Shown here piece after piece: positions 6,001-51,660 of a stretch of DNA of 64,000 nucleotides; positions within the stretch are counted from its first letter, which is position 1, and every line of letters starts with the position of its first letter. The stretch is from contig CM039462.1 of NCBI GenBank assembly GCA_022414725.1, forward strand, positions 47,638,685 through 47,702,684, in the 5' to 3' direction. Made by a program: the position numbers and the translations under genes. The stretch comes from Microglena sp. YARC. Its lineage: Eukaryota; Chlorophyta; Chlorophyceae; Chlamydomonadales; Chlamydomonadaceae. Under the pieces are notes generated by a model. It made no database searches and was not told where the DNA came from. It saw only the letters and a program-made list of their open reading frames with translations.

Positions 6001-6684
6001 TTGGCACCAGCACTGGCACTGGCATTGGAATTGGCATCAGCAACAGCAACAGCGCGTGCCCAGCACTAGCATTAGCACCAGCCCCAGCGTCAGCACCATA
6101 TCAGCACCGGCATCAGCATTGGAATCAGCATCAGCAACAGCAACAGTGCCTGCCCAGCAACAGCATTAGCACCAGCTCCAGCGTCGGCACCAGCATCAGC
6201 ATTGGCATCAGCATTGGAATCAGCACCAGCAACAGCAACAGCGCCTGCCCAGCACTAGCATGAGCACCAGCTCCAACGTCGGCACCAGCACTGGCACCGG
6301 CATTGGAATTGGCACCAGCAACAGCAACAGCGCCTGCCCAGCACTAGCATTAGCACCAGCTCCAGCGTCGGCACCAGCATCAGCACCGGCATCAGCATTG
6401 GAATCAGCATCAGCAACAGCAACAGCGCGTGCCCAGCACTAGCATGAGCACCAGCTTCAGCGTCGGCACCAGCACTGGCACCGGCATTCGAATTTGCATC
6501 AGCAACAGCAACAGCGTGTGCCCAGCACTAGCATGAGCACCAGCTCCAGCGTCGGCACCAGCACCGGCATCGGCATTGGAATCAGCATCAGCATCAGCAA
6601 CAGCAACAGCGCCTGCCCAGCACTAGCATTAGCTCCAGCATCAGCACCGGCATCGGCATTGGAATCCGCTTTGGTATCAGCATG
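1..6684. repeat. 95-bp minisatellite array with higher-order repeats
   Basis: CAGCA/CACCAG-rich tandem array. A unit measured between successive GCCTGCCCAG words (1091 to 1186) is 95 bp. Because 95 is not a multiple of three, the Ser/Thr/Ala- and Gln/His-rich open frames shift at every unit and are not credible proteins. Distinctive variant blocks recur exactly 1490 bp apart (2137 and 3627; 2319 and 3809), so longer blocks have been duplicated. The first 900 bases are a more irregular form of the same motif. The array runs off the left edge of the window. Confidence 0.9.
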
Positions 6685-6740: not shown

Positions 6741-6975
6741 CAGGGATATTTTTTTCAAACAAAAAAGAGGCAATCTTATTCCTTTTTATTTTACTCCTCC
6801 CTATTTTCCTCCCAAAACAGGATCCTTATTCCGATTTTGGTCGATTTGGGTCATTTTTAGTCAATTTCAGTACAAGTTTTTATTTTTTTATTTTTTGGTT
6901 TCTTATTCCGGCAATTTCGGCCAAAACGGGGTCTCGTATTCCGATCGGAATGTGTTTTGGAAAAAAATATCCCTG
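6741..6975. mobile_element. hAT-type MITE with CAGGGATAT terminal repeats
   Basis: The ends are inverted: CAGGGATATTTTTTTC on the left and GAAAAAAATATCCCTG on the right. They are flanked by CTCATCAA (6733-6740) and CTCATCAC (6976-6983), an 8-bp target duplication matching at 7 of 8 positions. An 8-bp duplication and CAGGG ends are hAT hallmarks. The 235-bp interior is T-rich with repeated TTATTCCG words and has no transposase, so it is non-autonomous. Confidence 0.7.
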
Positions 6976-7723
6976 CTCATCACCCCCCTCACGTTTACAT
7001 AGTCTCCCTCGTGGCTTTGGCTTGGCTTCTTCTGGACCATGTAAACCCTCCTGATGTACAACATACCTAAACCAAACCCAACCTCAATAAGGCCCCTCCT
7101 TACCCCCCCTCACGTTTACACAGTCTCCCTCGTGGCTTTGGCTTGGCTTCTTCTGGACCATGTCAACCCTCCTGATGTACAACATACCTAAACCAAACCC
7201 AACCTCAACAGGGCCCCTCCTTACCCCCCTCACGTTTGCAGAGTCTCCCTCGTGGCTTTGGCTTGGCTTCTTCTGGACCATGTCAACCCTCCTGATGTAC
7301 AACATACCTAAACCAAACCCAACCTCAATAGGGCCCCTCCTTACCCCCCCTCACGTTTACACAGTCTCCCTCGTGGCTTTGGCTTGGCTTCTTCTGGACC
7401 ATGTCAACCCTCCTGATGTACATCATACCTAAACCAAACCCAACCTCAATAGGGCCCCTCCTTACCCCCCTCACGTTTGCAGAGTCTCCCTCGTGGCTTT
7501 GGCTTGGCTTCTTCTGGACCATGTCAACCCTCCTGATGTACAACATACCTAAACCAAACCCAACCTCAATAGGGCCCCTCCTTACCCCCCCTCACGTTTA
7601 CACAGTCTCCCTCGTGGCTTTGGCTTGGCTTCTTCTGGACCATGTCAACCCTCCTGATGTACATCATACCTAAACCAAACCCAACCTCAATAGGGCCCCT
7701 CCTTACCCCCCTCACGTTTGCAG
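6976..7723 (+). repeat. Acceptor-junction array upstream of kinase exon A
   Basis: About six copies of a 120-121 bp unit. Each carries C-rich intron end, CACGTTTGCAG or CACGTTTACACAG, then the first ~45 bases of exon A. From 7109 onward the two variants alternate, giving a 241-bp dimer (CACGTTTGCAG at 7231, 7472, 7713). The last copy runs into the full exon. Amphipathic-looking ORFs on both strands here are repeat artefacts. Confidence 0.85.
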
Positions 7724-7953
7724 AGTCTCCCTTGTGGCTTTGGCTTGGCTTCTTCTGGACCCTGCCTTGCTTTGGCTGCATACCCACATCCTGAGGGCGG
7801 CCAATCATGGGGCAGTTCAGCAGGATGAGTCAGACGGCGACACAAAATCAATTCAGGAGGGGGGTCCCTTGTGGGATACCAAGTGGCTGGTTGTGAATGC
7901 ACTGCTGGCAGGTCTTACCCTGGGTCTGTCGTTCGCGCCTCTCAACCTTTTTG
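7724..7953 (+). CDS. Membrane sensor histidine kinase, exon A (two transmembrane helices)
   Basis: This internal exon starts after TTTGCAG and ends at donor GTGAGT (7954). It is read in phase 1 as VSLVALAWLLLDPALLWLHT, then a hydrophilic Q/D/E/S-rich loop of about 25 residues, then WLVVNALLAGLTLGLSFAPL. It gives two membrane helices of a polytopic sensor module. Phase 1 at its donor matches the acceptor of exon B, which supports the gene model. Any earlier exon would lie to the left and is not recognisable. The kinase assignment comes from exons D-F downstream on the same strand, and the linkage is inferred from matching phases and shared architecture. The family of the membrane module is unknown. 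Confidence 0.6.
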
Positions 7954-8272
7954 GTGAGTATTATTGGAAAACATTGATGGTGATGACGATGATGATGATA
8001 AAATTTAAAGCCTATTCCCTTGTGTGCTACCAAGTGGCTAGTGGTGAATGCACTGCTGGCAGGTCTTACCCTGGGTCTATCATTCGCGCCCCTCAACCTT
8101 TTTGGTGAGTATTATTGGAAACATGATGGTGATGATGACGACAATAATTAAAGCCTATTCCCTTGTGTGCTACCAAGTGGCTAGTGGCGAATGCACTGCT
8201 GGCAGGTCTTACCCTGCCCTGGGTCTGTTCTCGCGCCTCTCAACCTTTTTGGTGAGTATTATTGGAAAACAT

Positions 8273-8303
<31 letters not shown>

Positions 8304-8722
8304 AATAATTAAAGCCTATTCCCTTGTGTGCTACCAAGTGGTTAGTGGTGAATGCACTGCTGGCAGGTCGTACCCTGGGTCTGTATTTAGCGCCCCTCAA
8401 CCTTTTTGGTGAGTATTATTGAAAACATGATGGTGATGATGAGGCTGATGATGGTGATGAGAATACGAATAATAGAAGCCTGGTCGCTTGTGGGCTACCA
8501 AGTGGCTAGTGGTGAATGCACTGCTGGCAGTTCTGACCCTGGGCTTGTCTTTCGCGCCCCTCAACCTTTTTGGTGAGTATTATTGGAAACATGATGGTGA
8601 TGATGACGACAATAATTAAAGCCTATTCCCTTGTGTGCTACCAAGTGGCTAGTGGTGAATGCACTGCTGGCAGGTCTGACCCTGGGCCTGTCTTTCGCGC
8701 CCCTCAACATTTTTGGCGAGGA
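7954..8722 (+). repeat. Donor-junction array downstream of kinase exon A
   Basis: Five tandem copies, about 145-165 bp each, of the last ~80 bases of exon A plus its donor (GGTGAGTATTATTGG) and a GATGAT-rich intron start. The donor is retained in four copies (8106, 8252, 8408, 8572 approximately) and decayed to GGCGAG in the last. Copies differ by small indels and by the length of the (GAT)n run. Confidence 0.85.
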
Positions 8723-8869
8723 ATTACATCACAGTGGGGGACCCGTTTTTTTTATGTATTATTATTTGATTTCTTTGTTTATTTTTGCCTTTGAGATATC
8801 TCCATAGGTGCTTAAGTCTTGGTCAGCTTGAATCGCATGGTACAACCTATGGCCTCCAGTCCAAAGATA

Positions 8870-9165
8870 CACATTTTTGGCGAGCCCCCCCCTTCTGGGG
8901 GGCGGGAGCCCCCAAGTGTTAACCATTTGTCCGTTCGTCCATCCATCCATCCATCCATCCATCCATCTATCCATCCATCCATCCATCCCTCCATCCATCC
9001 ATCCATCCATCCATCCATCCATCCATCCATCCATCCGTCTGACCGTGATGAAGCCCGACACGTCAACCAATGGTCTCGTAACTAACTCGCTCCCGTTGCC
9101 ACCTGTCGCTGTCGCTCCGTCGCGATCACTCTCCGCCAATTTTAAGCGTCGCATGCGACGCTGCA
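8870..9165. repeat. Dispersed repeat with embedded (CCAT)n microsatellite
   Basis: Homologous to 55245-55465 and, inverted and partial, to 35106-35160. Shared blocks are TTCTGGGGGGCG and the end CTCCGCCAATTTT...GCGACGCTGCATAG. In this copy the middle is replaced by a (CCAT)n run at 8938-9036. The run gives spurious IHPS and DGWM repeat ORFs on the two strands. Confidence 0.7.
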
Positions 9166-9169
9166 TAGA

Positions 9170-10140
9170 TCTTGTTTGGCATTAAGTTGCCCAACCACAT
9201 CAGTTCAATATATAATACTTAAATTTGGGGTTGCTCAATTGGTGGGAACCAGGTCAAGTGGAACATGCTCATTGGTTTGCTATGGGCTTCCTTAAGTTGA
9301 ATCACCTTTTTGTAAAAAATGAATCATAGTCTATCGTGCTCATTACAAATTTTATTAAAATGAAAAGTTGGTAGACCTATAGCTCACATCTCTCTTTGCA
9401 AGACACGGTGATGGGAGGTAGCATATGTGAGGTAGCGTACATGCAGTACGGCAGTACACAGAGCCAAAAATCACTGATAAATTTACAGTTGTCGGGTGTC
9501 CTAAGTCATGTATGTAGCTGCGTAGACTCAGTTGCATCATTCTGAGTTCCAGTTTTTGCTTGATAGCATGTCGAGCAATTGAAAGAAACGTTGTTATAAT
9601 TTCAAATTTCATGTCACACTTCAAAAAAATAATAAAAAAAACGAGCTTATATTTCATCTTTCTTAAAAAAAAAAATGAACCTTATTTCAATCTTTCTTTA
9701 AACATCCACATCTGAAGTTAGATATTCATTTGGGATTGGGGGATAAATTCTCAAGTCGGGAGGTGGGATAGGGGCTATGGGAGGCCACTTTTCGAGGTAT
9801 ACTGCTTTTCAAGAAACTTGTGGTTAGGGTGCCAAAGCCTTGCATCCCGCTGAATCTTCATTCGCGGTAGCTCTCGCGATCCCGTACCACGCTCATTGAA
9901 GTCGATTCAAGCTTTTTGGTACATCTCGGGTACTGCCACGGCCTACCAAGCTGGGCTGCTCGCGGCCAGATGCGAATGCGAACGGAAATTAGCTGCGCAC
10001 CTAATTGACGCATTCGTGGACAATATGATTTACTAAGAAGCTTTAACCCCGAGCAGTCGGGGTCATGTTTGGCTTTGAATCACGAATAGGCGATTCAACT
10101 TTAGGGCGTTCTAGGTCTTAAAGCACTTATGGATATAGGG
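9170..10140. other. Kinase intron interior, no recognisable feature
   Basis: Moderately AT-rich unique sequence inside the putative A-to-B intron. One short hairpin (CCCCGA...TCGGGG, about 10047-10064) and several homopolymer A runs are visible. No ORF has recognisable protein content. Confidence 0.5.
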
Positions 10141-10590
10141 GTGCAAACAGATTAAGCGATTTCAAATCAAACTCAACCCCCCTATTCCTCCCACCCACCC
10201 CACCCCACCCCACCCCACCCCACCCCACCCCACCCACCACCCCACACCCATCTCATTCAACTCACCCCCCCTATTTCAACCCACCTTCATCCCCCCCCCC
10301 CCCCCCCCCTCCCCCCCACACCCACCCACCCCACCCCCACCCCACAGACACAACCTCATTCAACTCAACCCCCTATTCCTCCGCCAACCTCCCCCCCCCC
10401 CCCCTCCCTGATAATCCCCCCACCCACCCGCACCTCGTTCAACTCATCCCCTATTCCCCCCCCCGCCCCCCCCCCCCCCCCCCCCCCTCATTCAACTCAC
10501 CCCACTATCCCCCCCCCCCCGCCTCATTCAACTCAACCCCCCTATTCTACCCCCCTCATCCCCCCCACCCTATCCCAACCCCCTTGTTTC
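10141..10590 (+). repeat. C-rich tandem intron tail before exon B
   Basis: Degenerate copies of CATTCAACTCAACCCCC followed by CTATTC, separated by (CCCAC)n and long C runs. This is a very long pyrimidine tract ending in TTTCCTTCAG, the exon B acceptor. Unlike the other upstream arrays, these units do not contain exon sequence. Confidence 0.75.
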
Positions 10591-10596
10591 CTTCAG

Positions 10597-10887
10597 TCAA
10601 GATCGCTTCAGGAGTGGCCATCTTATTCGTCTTGTTGTTCGAGACACACACACTGGCGCCTGACATCTTCTCCTCTGCCAGCGTCACCACTGTCGAGGGT
10701 CTCCTAGGCACCCTGGTGTGGTCCTGCAAGCTTGTCTTAGGGGGGGCCTCTGTACTGGCGGCTGTGTTGCGCCACGGCAGTATGTCTGCTCAAGGGATGG
10801 CCAACCTGGCAGCCCTTGTACTGCTCGTAGTGCCTCTGGCCATGGCCACACTCATGATGCAGCTGCTGACAGGGAGCAAGCTGGTGG
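10597..10887 (+). CDS. Membrane sensor histidine kinase, exon B (three transmembrane helices)
   Basis: The exon follows TTGTTTCCTTCAG. Exon A ends with G in phase 1, and the first two bases here (TC) complete a valine codon. The reading is VKIASGVAILFVLLFETHTL, then LLGTLVWSCKLVLGGASVLA, then MANLAALVLLVVPLAMATLM, giving three hydrophobic helices and five in total with exon A. Two donors are possible: GTGGGT at 10884 (phase 0) or GTATGG at 10888 (phase 1). Only the second joins exon C in an open frame, so I chose it. The protein sits in a membrane; what it senses is unknown. Confidence 0.6.
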
Positions 10888-11400
10888 GTATGGGGTTTCA
10901 GGGTTTGGGCCCCCTTGTATTGCTCGTAGTGCCTCTGGCCATGGCCACACTCATGATGCAGCTGCTGACAGGGAGCAAGCTGGTGGGTATGGGGTTTCAA
11001 GGTTTGGGCCCCATTGTATTGCTCGTAGTGCCTCTGGCCATGGCCACACTCATGATGCAGCTGCTGAAGGGAGCAAAGCTGGTGGTATGGGTTTCAGGGT
11101 TTTGGGCCCCCTTGTATTGCTTGTAGTGCCTCTGGCCATGGCCACACTCATGATGCAGCTGCTGACAGGGAGCAAGCTGGTGGGTATGGGGTTTCAGGGT
11201 GTGGGATCTTGGTTGATGGACCCCTTGTATTGCTCGTAGTGCCTCTGGCCATGGCCACACTCATGATGCAGGCTCTGACAGGGAGCAAGCTGGTGGGTAT
11301 GGGGTTTTCAGGGGTTTGGCCCCCTTGTATTGCTCGTAGTGCCTTGGCCATGGCCACACTCATATGATGCAGGCGCTGCTGACAGGGAGCAAGCGCTGGT
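10888..11400 (+). repeat. Donor-junction array downstream of kinase exon B
   Basis: Five further copies, about 100-105 bp each, of the exon B end. They contain the GCTCGTAGTGCCTCTGGCC block, CTGACAGGGAGCAAG and the donor region CTGGTGGGTATGGG. Later copies carry one- to three-base indels. ORFs such as the repeated LLVVPLAMATLMMQ peptide simply read through these copies. Confidence 0.85.
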
Positions 11401-12325
11401 GGTTTCAGGGTTAGTGTTTGGGGTAGGTCTTTAGGGGAGGGGTTGGCGTTTGAGGTTTTTACCTGACCCCCCCTAACGTCCTGCCCTCCCTTAAACCCTG
11501 CACCCCTACCGCATCCCTCGTCTTGGGCATCCCTTCAGGACCCCCTCTCCCTCCCCCCCCCCTCCCTTGCAACACACACACACACACACACACACCCTTT
11601 CTTACCCCCCCCCTCCCCCCTTTGCTTACACACACATGCCCCTTCCCCCCCCCCCCCCCCCACCATCTTTTTTGTTTTCTCCCCTAACCCTAATTCTGGC
11701 CACCCCTCATTATCCCTTGGCATCCCCTTCAGGACACTCCCATCGTGTGTTCTCCCACAAACCGCTCTCATGCCAAAGAGGCTGACTTGAAGTCGCTCTC
11801 TGGATGGGGGAAGACACTGCACTCCCTGGATGAAGTGCTGAGCAGCATTGACCCCCCCCACCCCCCTGCACACACACACACACACACACACGGCCCTTTC
11901 TTCGTCCCCCCCTCCCCCCTCATGCATACACGCAACACAAAGACTACGTCCTTCTTCCTCCCCCCCCACCCCCCCATCCCTTCCTCCCCTAACTCTCCCC
12001 CCCCCACACATTATCTTCAGGACACTCCCAATGTGTCTCCCACTAACCGCTCTCATTGCGACGAGGCTGACTTGAAGTAGCTCTCTGGGAGGGGGAAGGC
12101 TCACTCCCTGGGTGAAGTGCTGAGCAGCATTGACCCCCCCCCCCCCCCCACCTCACCCCTGCACACACACACACACACACACACACACGCCCTTTCTTCC
12201 TCCCTCCCCCCCTCATGCATACACAGACACACAGAACGCCCTTTCTTCCCCCCCCCCCCCCCCCCCCACACACAACACACACATATTTTTCTCCCTAACC
12301 CTCCCCACCCCCTCATTATCTTCAG
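11400..12325 (+). repeat. Acceptor-junction copies and CA/C tracts upstream of exon C
   Basis: Two partial copies of exon C with their own acceptors (TTCAG at about 11732 and 12021) precede the real exon at about 290-bp spacing. Each copies about the first 110-120 bases of exon C and then breaks into C runs and (CA)n. CA microsatellites lie near 11573-11594, 11868-11891 and 12163-12188. C runs of 10-18 bases probably harbour length errors. Confidence 0.8.
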
Positions 12326-12536
12326 GATACTCCCATCGTGTCTCCAGCAAAACCGCTCTCAATGCCGACGAGGCTGACTTGAAGTCGCTCTCTGGGAGGG
12401 GGAAGAAGCACTCCCTGGATGAGGTGCTGAGCAGCATAGAGAACTCTCTAGGTGACCTGATGAATATGGAGAGTGGACAGAGCATGTCCGGGCGCCTGCT
12501 GGAGATGGGCAACCTGTACAGGATCACTGAGAAACA
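12326..12536 (+). CDS. Membrane sensor histidine kinase, exon C (linker)
   Basis: The exon begins after CATTATCTTCAG. Joined to exon B in phase 1 it reads GYSHRVSSKTALNADEADLK and continues to EVLSSIENSLGDLMNMESGQ and LLEMGNLYRITEKQ. The composition is soluble and helical, with a Ser/Lys-rich stretch (SLSGRGKKHSLDE). It lies between the last membrane helix and the HisKA domain, where sensor kinases carry a signalling linker. A donor at GTAACG (12537) gives phase 2, which does not match the frame wanted in exon D. A one-base error or a different boundary is likely. No named domain recognised. Confidence 0.5.
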
Positions 12537-12541
12537 GTAAC

Positions 12542-12573
<32 letters not shown>

Positions 12574-12800
12574 GTGGGTGGGTTGGGGGGGTGGGGTGGG
12601 GTGGGGGGTGGGGGGGGCAAGTTGTGTGTGTGTGGGTTGCTAGGGTGGACCTGATGAAAATGGGGGGTGGACAGAGCATGTTCCGAGCGCCTGCTGGAGA
12701 TGGCAACCTGTACAGGATCACTAGAACAGTAACGTGTGTGTGTGTGTGTGTGTAGTGTGTGTGTGTGGGGGGGGGGGGGGGGGGGGGGGGGGACGGGGGG
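12537..12800 (+). repeat. Donor-junction copy and G-rich tract after exon C
   Basis: (GT)n and long G runs, with one partial copy of the exon C end plus donor at about 12637-12740 (GGACCTGATGAAAATGG through GTAACGTGTG). A second (GT)n and a G run follow at 12734-12792. Confidence 0.75.
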
Positions 12801-13867
12801 GGAGGAAGCTGAGAAGTTTGCTGCTCAAGCTGGGGGTGGCCACTGCTTTCGATTTTCAACAACTGAGACCAGCTCCAAATCAAATAATCAACGAAGTGAA
12901 TAGCAATAACTCCTCTGTTATTTTGCAGTTGGTGACGAGATTGATGTTGAGGAGGAAGCTGAGAAGTTGCTACTTAAGCTGGGGGTGGCCACTGCTTTTG
13001 CTTGACTGTAGTAACGACCGATAACTTAAAATCAACCAAGCGACTAATAAATGCAGTGAATAACATAATATATTTTTTGCAGTTGGCGACGAGATTGATG
13101 TTGAGGAGGATGCTGAGAAGTTGCTGCTCAAGCTGGGAGTGGCCACTGCTTTTGCTTGACTGTAGTAACGACCGATAACTTAAAATCAACTAAGCGACTA
13201 ATAAATGAAGTGAATAACATAACATTTTTTGTGTGCAGTTGTTGACAAGATTGATGTTGAGGAGGAAGCTGAGTAGTTGCTGCTCAAGCTGGGAGTGGCC
13301 ACAGCTTTTGTTTTTTTACAACTAAGACCCAGCTTAAAAATTTACTAAGGCGACTAATAAATGAAGTGAATAACATAAATTCTTTTTTGTGGGCAGTTGG
13401 TGACGAGATTGATGTTGAAAAAGAGGAAGCTGAAGAAAGTTGCTGCTCAAGCTGGGAGTGGCCACTGCTTTTCGTTTTTTACAACTAAAGACCAGCTTAA
13501 AATCAACTAGCGACTCATCAACTAAGTGAATAACATAACATTATTTTATTTTGGCAAGTTGGTGACGAGATTGAATGTTGAAGAGGAAGCTGAAAAGTTG
13601 TTTCCTGGCTCAAGCTGGGAGTGGCCACTGCTTCTGTTTTTTACAACTAAGATCAGCTTAAAATCAACTTAGCGACTCATCAAAGAAGTAAATAACATAA
13701 CATTCTTTTATTTTGCAGTTGGCGACGAGATTGATGTTGATGAGGAAGCTGAGAAGTTGCTGCTCAAGCTGGGGGTGGCCACTGCTTTCGGTTTTTCCTA
13801 ACACCTGAGAGCTTCTAATCAAATAATCAACTAAGTGATAACAATATCACTTCTGTTATTTTGCAGT
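12800..13867 (+). repeat. Acceptor-junction array upstream of kinase exon D
   Basis: Seven copies, about 150-165 bp each. Each has TTTTGCAG or a variant, then about 75 bases encoding an acidic helix (GDEIDVEEEAEKLLLKLGVA), then AT-rich intron with AACTAAG and TAAATGAAGTGAATAAC. Copies start near 12927, 13080, 13238, 13394, 13554 and 13717, with a truncated one near 12800. Some copies encode a stop right after the helix, so they could act as alternative last exons or as poison exons. Confidence 0.85.
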
Positions 13868-14282
13868 TGGCGACGGAGATGATGTCGGACCGGGCGGAGG
13901 AGGCTGAGAAAGTTGACTGCTCAAGCTGGGGATGGCCATGCTAGTAGCAAACTGTCCACCTTGACCAGGATGCCAACAGGGGAGACGTCCCTCTGTACTG
14001 GCTGCAAATTGGAGTGACCACTAGTGACCAGCTACCACCAAGCAGGTGTCAGCCAGCCTGCGCCGGCGTGGCAGCCAGGCTGGCAATGGTGGTCAGGCTG
14101 AGGGTGGCCAGGCTGGCATCTCGGAGGCCACCCTGGCAGCAATGCTGGTCGGTCCGGATGGCTTGGCTTGGAAAGAAGTAGTGGAATCACTGCAAGAGCA
14201 ACAGCTCTTGATATGTTAGCGCAATGAATTATGAAGACCCACTGAATGGAGTGTTGGCCCTGATCCCAGAATGTGGTGGGCG
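13868..14282 (+). CDS. Membrane sensor histidine kinase, exon D (HisKA domain with H-box)
   Basis: The exon begins after ATTTTGCAG and ends at donor GTGAGT (14283). A middle frame reads QAGISEATLAAMLVGPDGLA, then KEVVESLQEQQ, a dimerisation-helix-like stretch. The 3' end encodes an H-box: comparing this copy with its two downstream copies, the consensus is HDMKNPLNGVLALSQNVV or close to it. That matches the H-[ED]-x-[KR]-[NT]-P-L pattern around the phospho-accepting histidine of HisKA domains. The exon itself has several one-base disruptions around the H-box, so its literal translation is broken. The duplicated copies help to separate sequencing error from real decay. Confidence 0.5.
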
Positions 14283-14734
14283 GTGAGTGTGTGTGTAGGG
14301 TTATTGAAGAAAGCTTTGTTTTCCCGTGATGCGCTTGCACTAGTGGTATGGTGCTTGGCTTGGAGGAGGTGGGTGGGGATATCAACTGCAAGAACACAAC
14401 TCTGATATAGTGCACTGACATTAAGAACCCACTGAATGGAGTGTTGGCCCTGTCTCCAGAACCGTGTAAGGCGGTAAGTGTGTGTGTAAGCGTAATGAGA
14501 GCTTGTTTTCGTGAGCGCTTGCAACTATGTATGGTGGCTTGGCTTGGAGGAGGGGGTTGGAATCCACTGCAGGACACAGCTCTGATATACGCGCATGATA
14601 ATGAAGAAACCCACTGAATGGAGTGTTGGCCTGTCCCAGAATGTGGTGGCGGTGAGTGGTGGGTTAGTGGTGTATTGGAGCATGTATGAAGTATGTAAAC
14701 ACATACGTATTGGTGTATGGTAAGATAATATGTT
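14283..14734 (+). repeat. Donor-junction array downstream of kinase exon D
   Basis: Two more copies of the exon D 3' end, each with CACTGAATGGAGTGTTGGCC and a donor (GTAAGT at about 14473, GTGAGT at about 14652), spaced about 180 bp. Downstream is GT/GTA-rich intron start. Confidence 0.8.
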
Positions 14735-15493
14735 ATGTGCGTGTATAGCTTTGCGACCAGCTTAACGTCTTTGCGAGCCTTAGCCTACCACTTCCCACCC
14801 ACCCACACCGCCCATCGCACCCCTGTCTTACCCCCTCCGCCACCTCCCCCTCCCCCAGGGCACCTTAGGCAGATCCCCGAGGTAGCTTGCGACCAGCTCA
14901 AGCGTTGTGCGAGCATGTGCCTACCACTTCCGTTCCCCACCCAACTCCCCATACTCATCCCATCCCTGTCTTACCTCACCCCTCCGCCCTCCGCCCCTCG
15001 CCCTCCAGGGCAACCTTCCGCGAGATCGGCCAAGGTAGTCTTGCGACCAGCTCAATGTTGTGCAAGCATGGCGCCTAGACTTCCCACCACCCACATCTCA
15101 TCCCACCTCTGTCTTATCCTCCCCCTCCGCCCTCCCCTCCCCCCAGGGCACCTACGCAAGATGCCAAGGTAGCTTGCGACTCAGCTCAACGTCCGTGCGA
15201 GCCATGGCGCTAACTCTTCCCACACCATGCCCACATCTCATCCCACCCTGTCTTACCATCCCCCTCCGCCTTCCCCCTCCCCCCAGGGCACCTTTGGCAA
15301 GATTCCCCAAGGTAGCTTGGCGACCAGCCTCAACTCGTGCCGAGCATGCGCCTACCACTTCCCACCCACCCATTCATACCCACCCTGTCTTACCCCCTCC
15401 CCTTGCCCTCCCTCCCTTCCCCCTTCCCGCCCACCCACTCACTCCGCCCCAACCCCACCCCCCGACCCTATCTGAACCCCGTTGGCCACCCAG
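14735..15493 (+). repeat. Acceptor-junction array upstream of kinase exon E
   Basis: Four clear copies, near 14857, 15008, 15146 and 15284, plus a fragment near 14750. Each has a C-rich tract, CCCCCAG, then GGCACCTT, an AGATCCCCAAGG-like block, GTAGCTTGCGACCAGC and CCTACCACTTCC. Spacing is about 140-150 bp, and the last copy leads into exon E. Confidence 0.85.
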
Positions 15494-15773
15494 GGGCACC
15501 TTTGGCGAGATCCCCAAGGTAGCTTGCGACCAACCTCAACGTCGTCGAGCTTGCGCCTACCACCCTCCTCAAACATGATCAACATGGAGCGCGACATGCT
15601 CAAAAATGATGAACGGGGGGGATGGAGAGTTGAATTCCTCGCTGTCCCAGATTTCCAACCAAGTGGATGAGGTCTTGAAAAGGATGCTCCCCATGGTTGG
15701 CACTCGACTCGCTGTGAACTACGAGCCCAACCCGGCACATACCATTTTGGCGGATGATCAGAGACTTTACCAG
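15494..15773 (+). CDS. Membrane sensor histidine kinase, exon E (between H-box and N-box)
   Basis: The exon starts after CACCCAG and ends at CAG before donor GTTGGT (15774). Readable segments are GTFGEIPKVACDQ, NMINMERDMLKND, then (15606 onward) ELNSSLSQISNQVDEVLKRM, LAVNYEPNPAHTILADDQRL and YQ. This is the usual stretch after HisKA leading into the HATPase_c N-box, where hybrid kinases have a pattern like P...I.GD..RL.QVL.NLL.NA.K. The residues ILADDQRLYQ correspond to that D..RL.Q segment. One frame change near 15605 (a G run) separates the two halves and is probably a base-count error. Confidence 0.6.
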
Positions 15774-16500
15774 GTTGGTCCCCCCACCACACAGACACAC
15801 CACCAACACACACACACAAACCCCCCCCCCACCCACCGACCATCACCGGACAAACACCACAGAACACACACGCAGACCAGCCCATGGTTGGCACTCGACT
15901 CGTGTAGGAACTAACGAACACCAACCCGGCGCATACATTTTGGCGGATGATCGAGGACTTGTACCAGGTTGGTCCCGCCCCACCCACCCACCCCAACCCC
16001 CCACGTCCATGGCCACCACCACAGCACACACAAAGGCCACCAACAAACACAAACACACACACAGCACACAGACCGCCCAATGGTGGGGGGCAGATCAACT
16101 CGTGGTGAACTACGAACCAACCCGCACATTACCAAATCTTGGCAGATGATCTGAGACTGTATAACCAGGTTGGTCCCACCACCTACCACCACCACAAACA
16201 CAAACACACACCACACAGACCCGCCCATGGTGGGGCATCAACTCTGTGGTGAACTACAAACCGCAACCGCGGCACATACCATCTTGGCAGATGAATCTGA
16301 GACTATACCAGGTCGCCCCCCCACCCCCCCCCACGTCCACCCACCCGACCCCACCTCCACCACTTAACGAAACAACAAACACACACAGACAGACACAGAC
16401 CGCACAATGGTGGGCACGGCTTCGCGGTGAAACTAACAAACCCAATCCGGCAATTACCATTTTGGCAGATGATCTAGAGACTAACGAGGTCGCCCCCCCC
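15774..16500 (+). repeat. Donor-junction array downstream of kinase exon E
   Basis: Four copies of the exon E end plus donor, ending near 15970, 16172, 16313 and 16490. Each repeats ATGGTTGGCACTCGACTCG, an ACTACGA..CAACCCGGCACAT block, a TTTTGGC(A/G)GATGAT block and CCAGGTTGGTCCC-type junctions. They are separated by CA- and C-rich intron. Confidence 0.85.
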
Positions 16501-17857
16501 CCCCCCCCCCAAACACAGCCACAAAAACAAAAGACACTCATCCCGACACCAACGCACACACACGATACATGCAACAGTACCCCCCCCCCCCTCCCACCCC
16601 CCGCAGCGTCATTGCATCGGCTCCAAGTAACGCTCGCGAGGGCAGCATCACCATCACCAACCGTTCAATTCCCCAGCTATCAAAACACAATCCCGATGCA
16701 AGAAGACACCACCCATATCCTAACCCTGTCCCAACGTCCAGTCCCTTTCCTACTCCCCCACTAATCACCCCGATCCCACCCACACTACCTTACCACTATC
16801 AATCGACACTGCCCCCACCCACCCCTTCCACACACACTTGCCACCACCTCCCACACCACCCACCACTCCAAACAACCCCACCCAACAGTCCTTCACTGGC
16901 GGTATTGCCAACGCCTTCAAGTACACTTGCAAGGGCAGCGTACCATAAACCATTCAACTCTGGCCAGACGGCCTATACGCACCCTTCTGATGCAAAGACA
17001 GAGACCACCGCATTTCCTAACCTCCCCCTGTCCCCGAACCCCAGTCCCTCTCCTAATTCCACCACCGATCACCCCCATCCCACCCAACACCACCACCGAC
17101 CACCACTTCATCACCACTACGAAAGACACCTCCCCACTCCAACGCACCTCCACCACCTCCCACAGATCTCCGCACCACACCCCCACCCCACCCACCGCCC
17201 AGATCCTACATGCGTCATTCCAACGCTTAGTACATCTTGCAAGGGCAGCGTCACCAAATCAACAACTTCACTCGCTGGCAAGCCTATACCACACCTGTCC
17301 GATGCAAAAGACACACCCAATCCTAAACCTCCCCCTGTCCCAACCCAGTCCTCCTAATGCCCATACTCACTCCCCTCCCCCACCAAACCACACCACCACT
17401 TCCATCACCACTACAAAGACACTTCCCCCCCCCCCGCCCCCTCCCCGCAGCACCCCCACACCGCAACAACCCTATCTCCCCACCTCCGCCCTTCCCCCCA
17501 CCCACCCTCCCCACCCACCGTCACACCCACACCCCATCCCACCCAACAAGGTCCTACACTGCGTCATTGCCTAACGCCTTCCAAGCACACTCGAAGGGCA
17601 GCGTCACCATCGAGCACCTTCAACTTCCGCCAACGCTATATGGCACTCCGATGCGAAGACAACCTCCATTCCTAAATCATCGTCCCCAACCCCAATCCCT
17701 CCCACATTCCCCACCACCACCCACCACCCATCCCACCCACCACCATCCACGACCAACTTCCACCAACCAGCTACCATATCTGACCCCCCCCCCCCCAACC
17801 CCCAAACACCCAATCACAACACCCTCCACCGCAACCAACCCACGCCACCAGACACAG
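16501..17857 (+). repeat. Acceptor-junction array upstream of kinase exon F
   Basis: Four degenerate copies of the exon F start, near 16606, 16889, 17203 and 17549, spaced about 280-345 bp. Each encodes a worn version of the N-box peptide (IANAFKYTCKGSVTI) followed by a CCGATGCGAAGAC-like block. They are embedded in CCCAC/CCACC-rich intron. Proline- and histidine-rich ORFs across this region are intron translations. Confidence 0.8.
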
Positions 17858-18205
17858 GTCCTTCACTGGCGTCATCGCCAACGCCTTCAAGTACAGCACG
17901 CAAGGGCAGTGTCAACCATCGACACCTTCAACTCCGCCGACGGCACTTACTACGGCACCTTCCGATGCGAAGACACACTCGAGCACCAAGAAGCCTCTCC
18001 CCAGAGCAACTGAGAAGTGTTAACCGCCCATAAGCCTCGTGCGCGGAGCAGCTGGGTCTGGGCTTGATGATGGTGAAGCGTCTGATGGCGGCCCCTTTTT
18101 GTGGGCTCCTTCGCGTTGAGGCAACCGGGCCGAATCGGCGAGGGGCCAACAGTGTTGGAGCTGAATTCTTTATGGCTAGCAAGAGATGCGCCCAGCCTGG
18201 TGCAG
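17858..18205 (+). CDS. Membrane sensor histidine kinase, exon F (HATPase N-box and G-box)
   Basis: The exon starts after ACACAG and ends at donor GTGCGT (18206). One frame gives TGVIANAFKY followed by a Q/KGSVTI-like segment, the ATPase N-box (N-A-x-K-[FY]-T, with the Mg-ATP-binding asparagine). YYGTFRCEDT resembles the D-box approach. A second frame gives GLGLMMVKRLMA, the G2-box, and then CGLLRVEATG and SVGAEFFMASK, the end of the Bergerat fold. Frame changes between these boxes mean the exon as assembled cannot be translated whole. A receiver domain could follow beyond the gap but is not seen. Confidence 0.6.
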
Positions 18206-20416
18206 GTGCGTGGGGGTGGGGTGGGGGTGGGGGGAGTCGGGAGGGCTTTCCCTTTGCGTGAGGCAACCGAGAACGGGCATGGTGGGTCCAAGTGCCTGGA
18301 GCTTCTTTTCACATGAGTTAGACGAGAGATCGCTCTGACTCTAGCTTGTGTGAGGTGCGTGGGGGTGGGGTGGGGGGGGAGACTCGGGGAGGGGCTCCTT
18401 ATAGCGTGAGCAAACCGGGAATCGGGAGGGGCCAGTGTGGAGCTGATCTTTATGGCTAGCAGAGATGCGCCCAGCCTGGTGCAGGTGCGTGGGGGTAGAG
18501 GGTGGGGTGGGGGGGAGGTTTTTGGGAGGGGGCCAGTAAGTGGGGCTGCATGCCTCATGGCTAGCAAGGATGCGCCCAGCCTGGTGAGGTTGGGTGGGGT
18601 GGGTGGTTGGTGGGGTGGGGGGAGTTGGGAGGGGCCAGTGTGGGGCTCATGCTCATGGCTAGCAAGGATGGCGCCCAGTTCTGGTGGCAGGTGCCGTGGG
18701 GGGGGGGTGGGTGGTGGGGGTGGGGGGAGATTGGGAGGGGCCAGTGTGGGGCTCATGCTCATGGCTAGCAAGGTATGCGCCCAGCCTGGTGGCAGGTGCG
18801 TGGGGGTGGGCGTGGGGGGAGTTTGGGAGGGCCAGTGTGGGGCTCATTGCTCATGGCTAGCAAGGATAGCGCCCAGCCTGGTGGCAGGTGCGTGGGGGTG
18901 GTGGGTGGGGGGGAGGGGAGGGGCCCAGTGTGGGGGGTCATGGCTCATGGCTACGCAAGGATGCCGCCCAGCCTGGTGCAGGTGCGTGGGGGTGGTGGTG
19001 GCGGGGGAGTTGGGAGGGGCTCAGTGTGGGGCTCATGCTCATGGCTAGCAAGAATGCGCCCAGCCTGGTTGCAGGTGCGTGGGGGTAGTGGTGGGGGAGT
19101 TTGGAGGGGCCAGTGTGGGGTCATGCTCATGGCTAGCAGTGATGCGCCCAGCCTGGTGCAGGTGCGTGGGGGGCGAAGGGGGTGAGGTATCCGTCGGTGG
19201 TGGTGGGAGGGACCGGGGGAAGACTTGGGAGAAGCCGGCCAGGTGTGGGGCTCATTGGCTCATTGGTAGCAAGGATCGCCCAGCTGGTGCAGTGCGTGGT
19301 GTGGGTGGGAGTTTGGGAGGGTCCAGTGTGGGCTCTGCTCATGGTTAGCAAAATAGCGCCCAGCCTGGTTGCAGGTGTAGTGGGGGTGGGGTGGGGGATT
19401 GGGAGGGGCCAGTGTGGGGCTCATGCTCGCGCTAGCAAGGGATGCGCCCAGCCTGGGTGCAGGTGGTGGGGTGGGGTGGGGGGGAGTTGGAAGGGGCCAG
19501 TGTGGGCTCATGCTCATAGGCTAGCAGGATGCGCCCAGTCCTGGTGAGGTGGGAGTGGGGGTGGGGTGGGGTGGTGGGCCGTGGTTGTCGGAATTTGGGA
19601 GGGGCGCAGTGTGGGGCTCATGCTCATGGCTACAAGGATGGGCGGCCAGTCCTTGGTGCCAGGTGCGTGGGGGGCGGGGTGGGTGGTGGGTGGGGGGGGT
19701 TGGGAGGGGCGCAGTGTGGGGCTCATGCTTCATGTGAGCAAGGAGTTGCGCCCAGCTGGTGCAGGTGGTGGGGGTGGGGTGGGGGGGAGTTGGGAGGGGC
19801 CAGTGTGGGGCTCATGCCTCATGGCTGCAAGGATGCGCCCAGCCTGGTGGCAAGGTGCGTGGGGGTGGGGTGGGGGGGCAGTTGGGAGGGGCCAGTGTGG
19901 GGTCATGCTCATGGCTAGCAAGGGATGCGCGCCAGCTGGTGCGGTGCGTGGGGGCGGGGTGGGTTGTTGGGGGTGGGGGGGAGTTGGGGTAGGGGCCAGT
20001 GTGGGGCTCAATGCTCATGGCTAGCAAGAATGCGCCAGCCTGGTTGCAGGTGCGTGGGGGTGGGGTGGGGTTGGTGGGGGTGGGGGGAGAGTTGGGAAGG
20101 GGGCCAGTGTGGGGCTATGCCTCATTGGCTAGCAAGAATGCGCCCAGCCTGGTGCAATGGTGCGTGGGGTGGGGTGGGTGGTGGGGTGGGGGGAGTTGGG
20201 AGGGTCAGTGTGGGGCTCAATGCTCTGGCTAGCAAGAATGCGCCCACCCTGGTGCAGGTGCGTGGGGGTGGGGGTTGGGTGGTGGGGTGGGGGGGAGTTG
20301 GGGGAGGTCCAGTGTGGGGGCTGCAGCTCATGGCTGCAAGAAATGCGCGCAGCCTGGTGCAGGTGCGTGGGGGTGGGGTGGGTGGTGGGGTGGGGTGGGG
20401 TGGGGTGGGGTGGGGT
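18206..20416 (+). repeat. Donor-junction array downstream of kinase exon F
   Basis: About 20 tandem copies, 85-125 bp each, of the exon F end (CTCATGGCTAGCAAGGATGC, CCCAGCCTGGTGCAG) plus donor GTGCGTGGGG and a GTGGGG-rich intron start. The array reaches the assembly gap. It is strongly G-rich on the plus strand. Glycine/tryptophan-rich ORFs here are artefacts. Confidence 0.9.
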
Positions 20417-21416
20417 NNNNNNNNNNNNNNNNNNNNNNNNNNNNNNNNNNNNNNNNNNNNNNNNNNNNNNNNNNNNNNNNNNNNNNNNNNNNNNNNNNNN
20501 NNNNNNNNNNNNNNNNNNNNNNNNNNNNNNNNNNNNNNNNNNNNNNNNNNNNNNNNNNNNNNNNNNNNNNNNNNNNNNNNNNNNNNNNNNNNNNNNNNNN
20601 NNNNNNNNNNNNNNNNNNNNNNNNNNNNNNNNNNNNNNNNNNNNNNNNNNNNNNNNNNNNNNNNNNNNNNNNNNNNNNNNNNNNNNNNNNNNNNNNNNNN
20701 NNNNNNNNNNNNNNNNNNNNNNNNNNNNNNNNNNNNNNNNNNNNNNNNNNNNNNNNNNNNNNNNNNNNNNNNNNNNNNNNNNNNNNNNNNNNNNNNNNNN
20801 NNNNNNNNNNNNNNNNNNNNNNNNNNNNNNNNNNNNNNNNNNNNNNNNNNNNNNNNNNNNNNNNNNNNNNNNNNNNNNNNNNNNNNNNNNNNNNNNNNNN
20901 NNNNNNNNNNNNNNNNNNNNNNNNNNNNNNNNNNNNNNNNNNNNNNNNNNNNNNNNNNNNNNNNNNNNNNNNNNNNNNNNNNNNNNNNNNNNNNNNNNNN
21001 NNNNNNNNNNNNNNNNNNNNNNNNNNNNNNNNNNNNNNNNNNNNNNNNNNNNNNNNNNNNNNNNNNNNNNNNNNNNNNNNNNNNNNNNNNNNNNNNNNNN
21101 NNNNNNNNNNNNNNNNNNNNNNNNNNNNNNNNNNNNNNNNNNNNNNNNNNNNNNNNNNNNNNNNNNNNNNNNNNNNNNNNNNNNNNNNNNNNNNNNNNNN
21201 NNNNNNNNNNNNNNNNNNNNNNNNNNNNNNNNNNNNNNNNNNNNNNNNNNNNNNNNNNNNNNNNNNNNNNNNNNNNNNNNNNNNNNNNNNNNNNNNNNNN
21301 NNNNNNNNNNNNNNNNNNNNNNNNNNNNNNNNNNNNNNNNNNNNNNNNNNNNNNNNNNNNNNNNNNNNNNNNNNNNNNNNNNNNNNNNNNNNNNNNNNNN
21401 NNNNNNNNNNNNNNNN
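20417..21416. other. Assembly gap of exactly 1000 N
   Basis: A round-number run of N, so the true distance is unknown. It separates a G-rich array on the left from a CA-rich array on the right. Open frames spanning it are meaningless. Confidence 0.99.
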
Positions 21417-27063: not shown

Positions 27064-27309
27064 CACATAACACTACGCCACGGTACTGGCACCACTCCAC
27101 ACACACTGACCCCGCACCAAACCAAGCTAACCAGACCAAACCTACCCTAACCACACAACGCCAAACTGCACCAAGCCGTCTCCCACCGTCCCTAAGTGCG
27201 CCTACTCTTTTGTAGGAGTGGCAACGCCATTTGAACTGAATCCTCGGGTGCCGCTAGTTTGTGGTAGGGAAACTCACCTCCTAGGGGGTGAAATTCCTTT
27301 TCACAACAA

Positions 27310-28018
27310 AAACAAAATCAAAAACCAGAGGACTAACCCACAATTCCAATGAACCTGCTCCAGGCCGACAACTTAAGGGCTGAGCGATCCCAAGAAACTG
27401 TGAAAAACTGTGAAATATCTTTCACAGCTAAAAGAAAAAGAAAACAAAAGAGGATTAATCCAAACTCCCCAAAATTGTGAAATACCTTGCACACATTAAA
27501 AAAAAAAGTGGAATTCAGCCACACCAATGAACCTGCTCCCAGGCCGACAACTTGAAGGCTGAGCGATCCCAAGAAAACTGTGGAAAAACTGGTGAAATAC
27601 CTGTCACAGCTAAAAGAAAGCAAAAACAAAAGAGTATTAATCCAAACTCCCCAAAATTGTATAATACCTTGCACACATTAAAAAAAAGTGGATTAAGCCA
27701 CACTAATGAACCTGCTCCAGGCCGACAACTTGAGGGCTTAGCGATCCTAAGAAACTGTGAAAAACTGAGAAATACCTTTCACAGCTAAAAGAAAGCAAAA
27801 ACAAAAGAGGATAAATCCAAACTCCCCAAAACTGTGAAATACCTTTCACACCTTCAAAACAAAGTGGATTAACCCACACTCCGAATGAACCTACTCCAGG
27901 CCGACAACTTGGAGGTTGAGCGGACACAAGAGACTGAAAAACTGTAAAATATCTTTCACAACTAAAAACAAAATCAAAACCAGAGGACTAACCCACACTC
28001 CCAATGAACTTGCTCCAG
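27310..28018 (+). repeat. Acceptor-junction array upstream of the SAM-domain exon
   Basis: Copies of a ~178-bp unit start at ATGAACCTGCTCC, at 27349, 27527, 27706 and 27885. A shorter final unit (28004) runs into the exon. Each copy carries TGCTCCAG and then about 40-45 bases of the exon start (GCCGACAACTTGAAGGCTG, then GAGCGATCCCAAGAAACTG). The intron part contains TTTCACAGCTAAAAG and A-rich stretches. Confidence 0.8.
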
Positions 28019-29459
28019 GCCGACAACTTGAAGGCTGAGCGGTCACAAGAGACTGTGCCCGAGAGCTCCAACTCTCTCGTCACCCTCCAACACCCGTCTG
28101 CCCCTCACCAACGCAACCTCGCCAAGCAAGCCTCCAAGCCCCAGGATCTAGCTACTGGACTGCCACGACACCCCCACCCGCAGCCGCTTCCGCAGTAGCA
28201 GCACCAGGAGGAACAGCAGGAGGCAAGAGAGAGGTAGCTATGGGGGGGCTAGGGACCCCCCTGCCCTCCACCAGCTCAGTCGACTTGTCCGAGGAGATGC
28301 CCTGGGACGAGGTCGACAACGAGCTTCTAACTGAACTAGGCATGGCCACGGCTGCCAGCAAGCGCCAACAGTCAGTTGCAGCCAGGCTGAAGCAGCAGCA
28401 ACAAGTGCAGCATCAGCAGCATCAGCAGCATCAGCAGGCGGCAGGGGACAGGGGACAGGCCGGGGAGGTGTGGGAAGGGCCAGTCAGTGACACCACAGTG
28501 CCAGACTTCCCTTCGGTTAGCCAGGAACAACCGCTTGATACAGCACCGCCTGCAGAAGGCCTCTCCCCCTCACCGTTTAAAAAACTCTCCCGCAGTTCCA
28601 CAGAGCAAACGGCAGGAGCAGGTGGTACCAAGACCCGTGTAAGCGACCTCCACTCTAAAAAATCCTTTAAGTTCACTGTCCTTCCCCCGGGGGAGCAGTC
28701 TCACAGCGAGGGGTGGGGGCCTGACAGCCCACGGGCAGATCTTGTGGGGGAGTCCTCCTTCTCCTCCCTAAGACTCTCCCGTCCCTCGCTCGAGCCAGGC
28801 CGCTGCCGGCCAGCCGGAGGACGAAAGGCGAGACCAGCACAACCACGCTGAGTGGCGGGGGAGGGGGCGAAGGGGGTGGGTTGGAGTCTGAACCCTCCGT
28901 GTCCTCCTCGGTGGGACAACCCATGACTGGGCCTGCTGTCCCGCCAACCGCGGCGAGCCTGATGGCCAACAGGTTTGGCCGCACCGGGCCCAAGCTGGCT
29001 AACAGCGTGGGCAGTTTAGAACGCACGGCAGGTGGAGAGCCACGTAGCAACAGTCTGGACATCCATAGCAAAAGCATGGGGCTCCGCAGCCAGAGCCTGG
29101 TGGACTTGCAAAGCAAGCTCCTGGCAGCTACACTGAACGCGAAAGCCCTAGCTAGGGCGGCTGGCACCGACGTGCATCTGTCCCCCCTCGCTGGACCACG
29201 GGGAGGTGTACCTAGAGGGGCGTCGACTTTGTCTGCCCCGACCTCCCTGCTGCCCCCTTCGGGTAAGCCCAAGGATCTGTCTGAACTGCTGAACGGGATT
29301 CAGTTAGGCTACTATGCGAAGCAGTTCAAGGACCAGGGCATCACGATCGATGATTTGCAGGCCATGGACGACGCCTCCATGCGCAAGGCAGGATTGGTGA
29401 CGAGCCGAAGCAGACTGATGGTGACTGACGAGCTCAGGCGGCTTGGCCTGAAGCAGTGA
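28019..29459 (+). CDS. SAM-domain protein, large exon
   Basis: The exon starts after acceptor TTGCTCCAG with ADNLKAERSQETVPESSNSL and ends at LRRLGLKQ and a stop (29457-29459). Three frames are needed: 28019-28198, 28240-28851 (DLSEEMPWDEVDNELLTELG, then a Gln/His run, then FKKLSRSSTE) and about 28855-29459. The two shifts look like base-count errors or decay. The C-terminal ~60 residues form a sterile alpha motif: LSELLNGIQLGYYAKQFKDQ, GITIDDLQAMDDASMRKAGL, then TSRSRLMVTDELRRLGL. SAM domains mediate protein or RNA binding. The upstream part is Ser/Pro-rich and probably disordered. GTGAGC overlaps the stop and could be a donor, so this need not be the last exon. Confidence 0.65.
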
Positions 29460-29640
29460 GCCTGCAGGTCACCACTATCAGGCAGATGGTGTCTGACGAG
29501 CTCAGGCGGCTTGGCCTGAAGCAGTGAGTCTCCAGATCACCACCGCCAGGCAGATGGAGGCGGACGAGCTCAGGCGGCTTGGCCTGAAGCAGTGAGCCTG
29601 CAGGTCTCCACCATCAGACTGATGGTGTCTGTCGCCACAT
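29460..29640 (+). repeat. Copies of the SAM-exon 3' end
   Basis: Two further full copies of a 72-bp block containing GAGCTCAGGCGGCTTGGCC and TGAAGCAGTGAGYCT, plus a third partial copy. The stop/donor overlap (CAGTGAG) is retained in each. This is the donor-side counterpart of the upstream array. Confidence 0.8.
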
Positions 29641-50067: not shown

Positions 50068-50162
50068 TCAACTATAGAAATACCTGTCTCCTAAATGAGA
50101 CAGGCTGGCGGCAGTGTGAACTATAGAAACACCCGTCTCCTATCTGAAACAGGCTGGCGGCA
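50068..50162 (-). repeat. Tandem copies of the ankyrin-RING 3' end
   Basis: Two units of about 54 bp. The inner one is the actual end of the reading frame and the outer one is an extra copy beyond the stop. Confidence 0.7.
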
Positions 50163-51617: not shown

Positions 51618-51660
51618 GAACTAATAAGTCTATGAAGGTTGCCCAGCATCTACCACGAAT

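What the first reader, a model, noticed from the sequence alone, without database searches (positions are those of the whole stretch)
7724..20416. Every exon of a histidine-kinase gene is bracketed by tandem copies of its own splice junctions
For six consecutive exons, copies of [intron tail + acceptor + exon start] lie immediately upstream, and copies of [exon end + donor + intron start] lie immediately downstream. Approximate counts (upstream/downstream): exon A 6/5; B none/5; C 2/1; D 7/2; E 4/4; F 4/20. Only one copy of each exon middle exists. Copies keep a usable AG or GT, so the gene offers many decoy or alternative splice sites per junction. This is neither exon duplication nor a conventional intron satellite. 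The amplified unit is centred on the boundary itself, which suggests a process (replication slippage, R-loop, or end-joining at intron ends) that targets junctions.
Basis: seen in the sequence. Interest (0 to 1): 0.92.

Follow-up and report, generated by a model that had tools for sequence, protein, structure and literature searches.

The report
Introns built from duplicated splice junctions
In this algal genome short pieces of DNA are copied side by side so often that about half of the sampled gene junctions have extra, apparently intact splice sites lying beside them in the intron, which raises the open question of how the cell picks the right one.

Summary
From about 12.5 kb copies carry long-read-like indels, but clean arrays occur in this gene, a neighbouring SAM-domain gene and elsewhere. 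The window lies in an unnamed 568-Mb genome, probably a green alga. In 38 kinesin exons copies span 21 start and 16 end edges, lie on the intron side, and are absent 150 bp inside exons. Kinesin and SNF2 family hits, and one TCP-1 pair, repeat the geometry.

Junction-targeting is not needed. Similar copies fill 30% of random sequence (0% after shuffling) and much of the introns. A junction-blind simulation with exon interiors protected gives similar frequency and exon depth, but too many deep exon copies. Best reading: pervasive short tandem duplication filtered by selection; copies on the intron side become intron. Decoy GT/AG are kept. RNA evidence is missing.

The parts
6976..7761 (+). Exon A upstream array: 7 copies of intron tail + acceptor + about 36 bp of exon start, 121-bp unit, clean, 241-bp higher-order period
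   Evidence: substitutions only
7724..7953 (+). Exon A (hydrophobic N-terminal part of the histidine kinase), donor GTGAGT at 7954
   Evidence: sequence and open frame
7865..8726 (+). Exon A downstream array: 6 copies of exon end + GTGAGT + intron start (the last with GCGAGG)
10597..10887 (+). Exon B; no exon copies upstream
10813..11422 (+). Exon B downstream array: 6 copies, 99-bp unit
11539..12440 (+). Exon C upstream array: 3 copies of exon start, about 307-bp unit
12326..12537 (+). Exon C (all but 13 bp lies in its two arrays)
   Evidence: open frame; donor uncertain
12454..12805 (+). Exon C downstream array: 2 copies
12791..13942 (+). Exon D upstream array: 7 copies plus one partial, about 154-bp unit, noisy
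13867..14282 (+). Exon D (frame broken, low-accuracy sequence)
14159..14680 (+). Exon D downstream array: 3 copies
14746..15563 (+). Exon E upstream array: 5 copies, about 140-bp unit
15494..15772 (+). Exon E (start of HATPase domain)
15690..16537 (+). Exon E downstream array: 5 copies, about 190-bp unit
16611..17978 (+). Exon F upstream array: 4 aligned copies of exon start, about 300-bp unit
17858..18205 (+). Exon F (HATPase, rest of domain), donor CAG|GTGCGTGG
18140..20410 (+). Exon F downstream array: 22 copies of exon end + donor + G-rich intron start, running to the assembly gap; insertion-rich errors
20417..21416 (.). Assembly gap of exactly 1000 N
27305..28055 (+). Second gene (SAM domain): 5 copies of intron tail + exon start, about 179-bp unit, mostly clean
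29411..29616 (+). SAM gene: 3 copies of exon end + CAGTGAGC (donor or stop codon) + following sequence, 68-bp unit, no indels
37680..41803 (-). For comparison, inside coding sequence: ankyrin repeat unit of 99 bp (33 codons), about 34 copies or more

Best explanation
The genome undergoes frequent short tandem duplication (units mostly 100-250 bp) wherever it can. A unit that straddles a splice junction leaves one copy attached to the exon body and puts the other on the intron side; if the exon-attached site (first donor, last acceptor) keeps being used, the protein is unchanged and the new copy is simply intron. Units inside an exon, or covering a whole exon, change the protein and are lost unless in frame and tolerated, as in the ankyrin array of this window. 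Repeated rounds build introns from retired copies of their own two ends. Shown here: the arrays, their one-sided geometry, their occurrence in unrelated genes, the sparing of exon interiors, and similar unit sizes off the junctions. Inferred: purifying selection as the filter, use of the exon-attached site, and slippage or template switching between short direct repeats as the duplicating step (seen at three breakpoints picked by eye).
For: Arrays in the window and a second gene. In 38 kinesin exons copies span 21 start and 16 end edges (which counted the intron side only), which looked both ways, found them at 19 start edges, all upstream, and 14 end edges, all downstream, and at 3 of 38 exon midpoints. 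Family-hit pairs of exon body and partial copy: 9 start copies all upstream, 6 end copies all downstream (kinesin 4 and 4, TCP-1 0 and 1, SNF2 5 and 1). Random stretches: 29.5% of scored bases in such copies, shuffled 0.000. Nearest-copy distance: junction arrays median 190, intron-only arrays 182, random stretches 149 bp. Junction-blind simulation: 43-71% of edges with arrays (starting introns 150-400 bp) and exon part median 83-93 bp, against 33 of 61 and about 80 bp observed. Acceptor units carry more intron than donor units (median 112 versus 73 bp, p 0.012; under 50 bp in 1 of 27 versus 7 of 25, p 0.022), as expected if the surviving acceptor must keep its branch point and pyrimidine tract. 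Unit length is a multiple of 3 in 11 of 52, so the copies are not kept as coding options. Direct repeats of 8, 7 and 5 bp at breakpoints in L033, L027 and L004.
Against: The simulation predicts 22-26% of units reaching 130 bp or more into the exon; observed 4 of 52, maximum 145, and the spread of the exon fraction is slightly too narrow (p 0.01). The simulation's rule that acceptor units keep 50 bp of intron was set by me with the data in view, and it drew on 40 of the unit lengths, the longest left out. In this gene 11 of 12 edges are hit, above the sampled average. Decoy sites show no sign of being removed, although misuse should be costly. Near exons the span of junction arrays (45% of the nearest 600 bp, counted out to the farthest copy) exceeds other tandem copies (16%), which needs short ancestral introns. 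Starting introns of 600 bp give only 26-40%. No RNA data.
Confidence: 0.62

Rival explanations
1. A duplication process tied to splice junctions, for example to co-transcriptional RNA structures or paused polymerase at exon ends, duplicates about 80 bp of exon with adjacent intron.
For: Exon part narrow (IQR 67-109 bp, max 145) and unrelated to unit length (rho 0.18, while the intron part has rho 0.87); same median for acceptor and donor sides (80 and 81 bp); 11 of 12 edges in this gene; junction arrays span 45% of the flanking 600 bp.
Against: Introns away from junctions and random stretches carry arrays of similar unit size; the blind simulation reaches the observed frequency. Unit lengths are overestimated where copies are missing, which inflates the contrast in depth; family hits show copies up to 55 residues deep.
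Confidence: 0.17
2. Assembly artefact: gap filling with raw long reads repeated contig ends into introns.
For: Copies from about 12.5 kb have insertion-rich errors and end in a 1000-N gap; arrays face most introns of this gene from both sides.
Against: A-up and SAM-down have substitutions only; arrays in L025 (94% match, 1% indels) and L048 (91%, 0% indels) are clean, as are those of L004; a START array is shared by L033 and L047, 98% alike over 1.7 kb, though these could be one locus assembled twice; no N in the 20 stretches fetched.
Confidence: 0.07
3. The copies are functional alternative or decoy splice sites that tune expression.
For: Donor GT kept in 38 of 42 copies against 201 of 262 other GT in the same units (Fisher p 0.04; per array p 0.11); acceptor AG 52 of 57 against 219 of 252 (p 0.50; per array p 0.29). 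Against mean identity the acceptor excess has p 0.02 per array, the donor 0.07.
Against: Against the matched dinucleotide the per-array tests are not significant; unit lengths do not favour multiples of 3 (11 of 52); copy numbers vary widely between junctions.
Confidence: 0.08
4. The arrays are remains of intron birth by tandem duplication of exon segments with AGGT (tandem genomic duplication).
For: In L050 the intron begins with a copy of the start of the next exon: 13 of 24 anchored bases against a START copy of that exon; joining the two gives the kinesin motif SKTGATGVCLKEA.
Against: Only that 1 of 11 introns examined shows it; the other 10 give 3-8 of 24 at the 5' end and 3-9 of 24 at the 3' end. 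The donor and acceptor arrays of one intron are different sequences.
Confidence: 0.05

Closest known systems
Tandem repeats enriched towards intron ends in Chlamydomonas reinhardtii and Volvox carteri (PMC3887541; passages and section 5 read)
   Same: Green algae, tandem repeats dense in introns and more frequent near intron-exon junctions
   Different: That survey used units of 1-50 bp and mapped repeats within intron sequence; here units are mostly 100-250 bp and include the junction and up to 145 bp of exon
Tandem genomic duplication as a source of introns (review PMC3443670, passages read; PMC4974935, search listing only)
   Same: Short tandem duplication in a gene whose product is spliced out, leaving the mRNA unchanged
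   Different: There one duplication of exon DNA creates a new intron between duplicated AGGT; here existing junctions are duplicated many times and introns grow
Minisatellites / VNTRs inside genes (recalled)
   Same: Head-to-tail arrays, higher-order period in A-up, short direct repeats at a few breakpoints
   Different: Found at about half of the sampled kinesin junctions rather than at scattered loci, with units cut from the local junction
Repeat-rich Haematococcus lacustris genome (PMC7617258, passages read)
   Same: Short repeats in tandem forming complex patterns over tens of kilobases
   Different: The passages I read did not describe copies of splice junctions

Membership tests
Tandem repeat (minisatellite-class) array | Head-to-tail copies of one unit at one locus | tested here: met
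Tandem repeat (minisatellite-class) array | Copy number variable between individuals | not testable with these tools
   one assembly only
Intron gain by tandem genomic duplication | Intron 5' end matches start of downstream exon, or intron 3' end matches end of upstream exon | tested here: not met
   10 of 11 introns without it (3-8 of 24 bases at the 5' end, 3-9 at the 3' end); L050 alone 13 of 24
Introner elements | Similar intron sequence dispersed at many loci | not tested
   the genome search with the SAM-gene unit did not complete
Mutually exclusive or duplicated exons | Whole exon with both splice sites duplicated | tested here: not met
   for the window exons, copies end within the exon; HATPase hits sharing both model ends in L004 are exon-start copies cut off near the end of the domain
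Assembly artefact | Copies restricted to low-accuracy sequence or gap edges | tested here: not met

The most novel reading that the evidence does not exclude
In this genome splice junctions are themselves preferred sites of tandem duplication, through a transcription- or splicing-coupled process that reaches about 80 bp into the exon on either side; introns grow from both ends by repeated duplication of their own junctions, and the spliceosome tolerates many intact decoy sites by always taking the exon-attached one.
Probability: 0.18. Interest if true: 0.9.

Novelty: new variant of a known kind. Interest (0 to 1): 0.7.

Why it matters
If about half of all junctions carry several intact copies of themselves, this alga is a natural large-scale test of how a spliceosome chooses between identical sites (first donor, last acceptor, exon or intron definition), and of how introns lengthen. 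It also suggests that gene prediction may fail here: a EukProt model identical to one kinesin exon runs on into unrelated sequence after the junction. The pattern shows how a junction-centred look can arise from blind duplication plus selection.

Tried and rejected
Fuzzy regular-expression counting missed copies and was replaced by local alignment. A first profile of repeated sequence used a complexity filter that grew with length and wrongly removed long matches; one search replaces it. Tandem Repeats Finder alone finds fewer junction arrays. In one search the reference point of the B-down junction was set two bases off; its 5 copies were dropped. Enrichment at junctions as proof of targeting was rejected. 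In-frame use of the copies was rejected. Intron birth by duplication was rejected as a general origin. The species could not be named: the ankyrin-RING search listed no hit above 48% identity (120 of 3866 listed), the HK search found none; one kinesin exon is identical to a EukProt entry without a species name, and the nearest named entries are Dunaliella salina and Tetraselmis at 58%. Paper searches for a description of junction arrays listed none that I recognised as such; the library lacks most subscription journals.

Rows dropped: of 128 kinesin hits 46 were typed for the locus analysis, 42 lay inside loci, and 4 that are themselves array copies were removed, leaving 38. These 38 include edges at the ends of the domain that need not be splice junctions; one search leaves those out (61 edges). 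For the pair test 114 of 128 kinesin, 61 of 64 TCP-1, 12 of 39 HATPase and 65 of 133 SNF2 hits were used; most of those left out in kinesin, HATPase and SNF2 are long intronless repeats. Pairs not in the 9 and 6 quoted: kinesin 1 'neither' (an end copy six model positions off), 1 'both', and 2 pairs of two copies of one array, which by themselves count as reversed; TCP-1 2 'neither'; HATPase 3 'both'; SNF2 3 'both' among copies. Of the 52 arrays come from kinesin exons (L047 start left out as a duplicate of L033, and for L036 the second distance was used) and 16 were added by hand from the window (SAM gene included), L004 and L005.
Full report
What is there. The window lies in a eukaryotic genome of 568,105,699 bases in 2390 contigs. 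Between 7.7 and 18.2 kb it holds at least six exons, on the plus strand, of a histidine kinase. My reading of the exons gives a composite protein that matches HATPase_c (E 1.2e-5, 26.2 bits against a cut-off of 26.4) and the ethylene receptor ETR1 (PDB 4pl9, E 1.1e-6). The gene's last array ends at a gap of exactly 1000 N at 20417.

The observation. Aligning each junction with its surroundings gives total copies of A 7/6, B 1/6, C 3/2, D 7 plus a partial/3, E 5/5, F 4/22, upstream/downstream. In introns B-C, C-D, D-E and E-F the donor array of one exon is followed after at most about 120 bp by the acceptor array of the next, so these introns consist almost wholly of copies of their own ends. 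Intron A-B has in addition about 1.9 kb of other sequence. 78.1% of scored bases of 6900-20416 have a tandem copy, against 0.000 in each of ten shuffles; exons A, B, D, E and F have a single-copy middle of 98-216 bp, exon C of only 13 bp.

Sequence quality. From about 12.5 kb to the gap the copies differ mainly by single-base insertions (F-down: 67 insertions, 32 deletions, 19 substitutions in 1291 bases), the mark of an uncorrected long read (my inference). B-down is intermediate (9, 11 and 8 in 462). A-up and the SAM-gene downstream array have substitutions only. The arrays therefore do not depend on the bad stretch, but details of D to F do.

Not only this gene. The neighbouring SAM-domain gene has 5 copies at the start and 3 at the end of its exon; whether that end is a donor or a stop codon is open. 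L004, another histidine kinase in clean sequence, has 2 copies of a donor region and 3 of the next acceptor region; L005 has 7 of a donor region. Of the 12 HATPase hits examined (in L004, L005, L008 and L010) have an extra copy at an edge and 6 have none.

Genome-wide sample. I searched the genome with the kinesin domain and examined 38 exons in 30 stretches. Tandem copies span the start edge in 21 and the end edge in 16 (intron side only). Where a consensus splice site could be assigned, 27 of 53 kinesin junctions have copies (without the 6 junctions added by hand). Looking both ways, one search finds copies at 19 start edges, all upstream, and at 14 end edges, all downstream; midpoints have copies in 3 of 38 exons, all three with hits of 237 bp or shorter. 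Family hits alone show the same: 9 start copies upstream and 6 end copies downstream of the exon body, in kinesin, TCP-1 and SNF2 (the pairs set aside are listed under rows dropped). The one-sided geometry follows from tandem duplication of a segment that straddles a junction.

Is the junction the target? The share of scored positions with a tandem copy is 65-73% at 100-350 bp outside start edges (58-69% outside end edges), 39-65% at 500-1000 bp (where the stretches end and partners are lost), 56/49% at the edge, 55/47% at 50 bp inside, 20% at 100 bp and 0 of 13 at 150 bp. Eight random 10-kb stretches average 29.5% (0 to 89%); eight shuffled stretches 0.000. Nearest-copy distances are alike: junction 190, intron-only 182, random 149 bp. 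A simulation of random duplications with 40 of the observed unit lengths, rejecting those inside exons, those with more than one change between exon and intron, and those leaving too little intron for the splice site (50 bp for acceptors, 6 for donors, my choice), gives arrays at 43-71% of edges for starting introns of 150-400 bp grown to 0.9-1.2 kb, 26-40% from 600 bp, and an exon part of 83-93 bp; observed are 33 of 61 and about 80 bp. So targeting is not required.

What does not fit. The exon part never exceeds 145 bp in 52 arrays, reaches 130 bp in 4 of 52 against 22-26% in that simulation, and does not grow with unit length. Family hits include copies of up to 55 residues, so the cap is not absolute. 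Part of the effect may be that unit lengths are overestimated where copies are missing. It may be selection against long exon pieces in introns, or a real preference.

Selection. Acceptor units carry at least 50 bp of intron in 26 of 27 arrays, donor units in 18 of 25 (p 0.022). A surviving acceptor needs its branch point and pyrimidine tract, a donor only a few bases (established knowledge). Unit lengths are multiples of three in 11 of 52, so there is no sign of coding use. Decoy dinucleotides are kept (donor 38 of 42, acceptor 52 of 57) at least as well as the same dinucleotides elsewhere in the units (201 of 262, 219 of 252): the decoys are not being removed. Within coding sequence the same kind of expansion is seen in whole codons in the 99-bp ankyrin unit at 37.7-41.8 kb.

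Duplicating step. At three breakpoints the two ends share a short direct repeat: CCCTGACT in L033, TTGATGC in L027, CAAGC in L004. This suits slippage or template switching, but the breakpoints were picked by eye and not tested against chance.

Organism. A 217-residue query from one kinesin exon and its flanks matches a EukProt entry without a species name at 100% over 89% of its length; the nearest named entries are Dunaliella salina and Tetraselmis (58%). A green alga is likely; the species is not established.

Verdict. The most probable cause is pervasive blind tandem duplication seen through the filter of selection on exons. What is striking is the scale: about half of the sampled kinesin junctions are accompanied by copies of themselves, most with the splice dinucleotide intact. 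Nothing here shows which sites are used.

Noticed in passing
L050:1697-2450 (G000 C1, kinesin gene): The intron begins with a copy of the start of the next exon (GTGCCAC.. versus GCGCCACTGGTG..), and the donor copies keep it; this looks like an intron born by duplication of an exon segment with AGGT.
   Followed up: partly
G000, SNF2 hits about 2-181, HATPase hits about 5-88 and kinesin hits about 10-243: Dozens of hits with nearly the same model coordinates and scores, most in long open frames, are scattered over the genome, as of a large repeated mobile or viral-type element. Only noted from coordinates.
   Followed up: no
window 37374-41822 and 50121-51620, minus strand: Two related ankyrin-repeat genes, the second with a RING finger; in the first the 99-bp ankyrin unit is expanded to dozens of copies with several frame changes that may be sequence errors.
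   Followed up: no
window 27-6652 and 60402-62384: Long tandem arrays (95-bp unit, about 61 copies; 179-bp unit, 11 copies at 95%) that are not tied to a recognised exon.
   Followed up: no
L033 and L047 (G000 C1:190.74 and 190.77 Mb): Kinesin stretches 98% alike over 1.7 kb share a start array; L047 lacks the end array and runs straight into another repeat array, as after a deletion between arrays. They could also be one locus assembled twice.
   Followed up: partly
P0123 (EukProt) versus L022/L050: A public gene model with the identical kinesin exon continues after the junction in unrelated sequence, perhaps because the arrays confuse gene prediction.
   Followed up: partly
window 45793-46514: By eye, about four copies of a unit of roughly 175-215 bp with a donor-like CAGTAAGAT in most; not assigned to a gene.
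   Followed up: no
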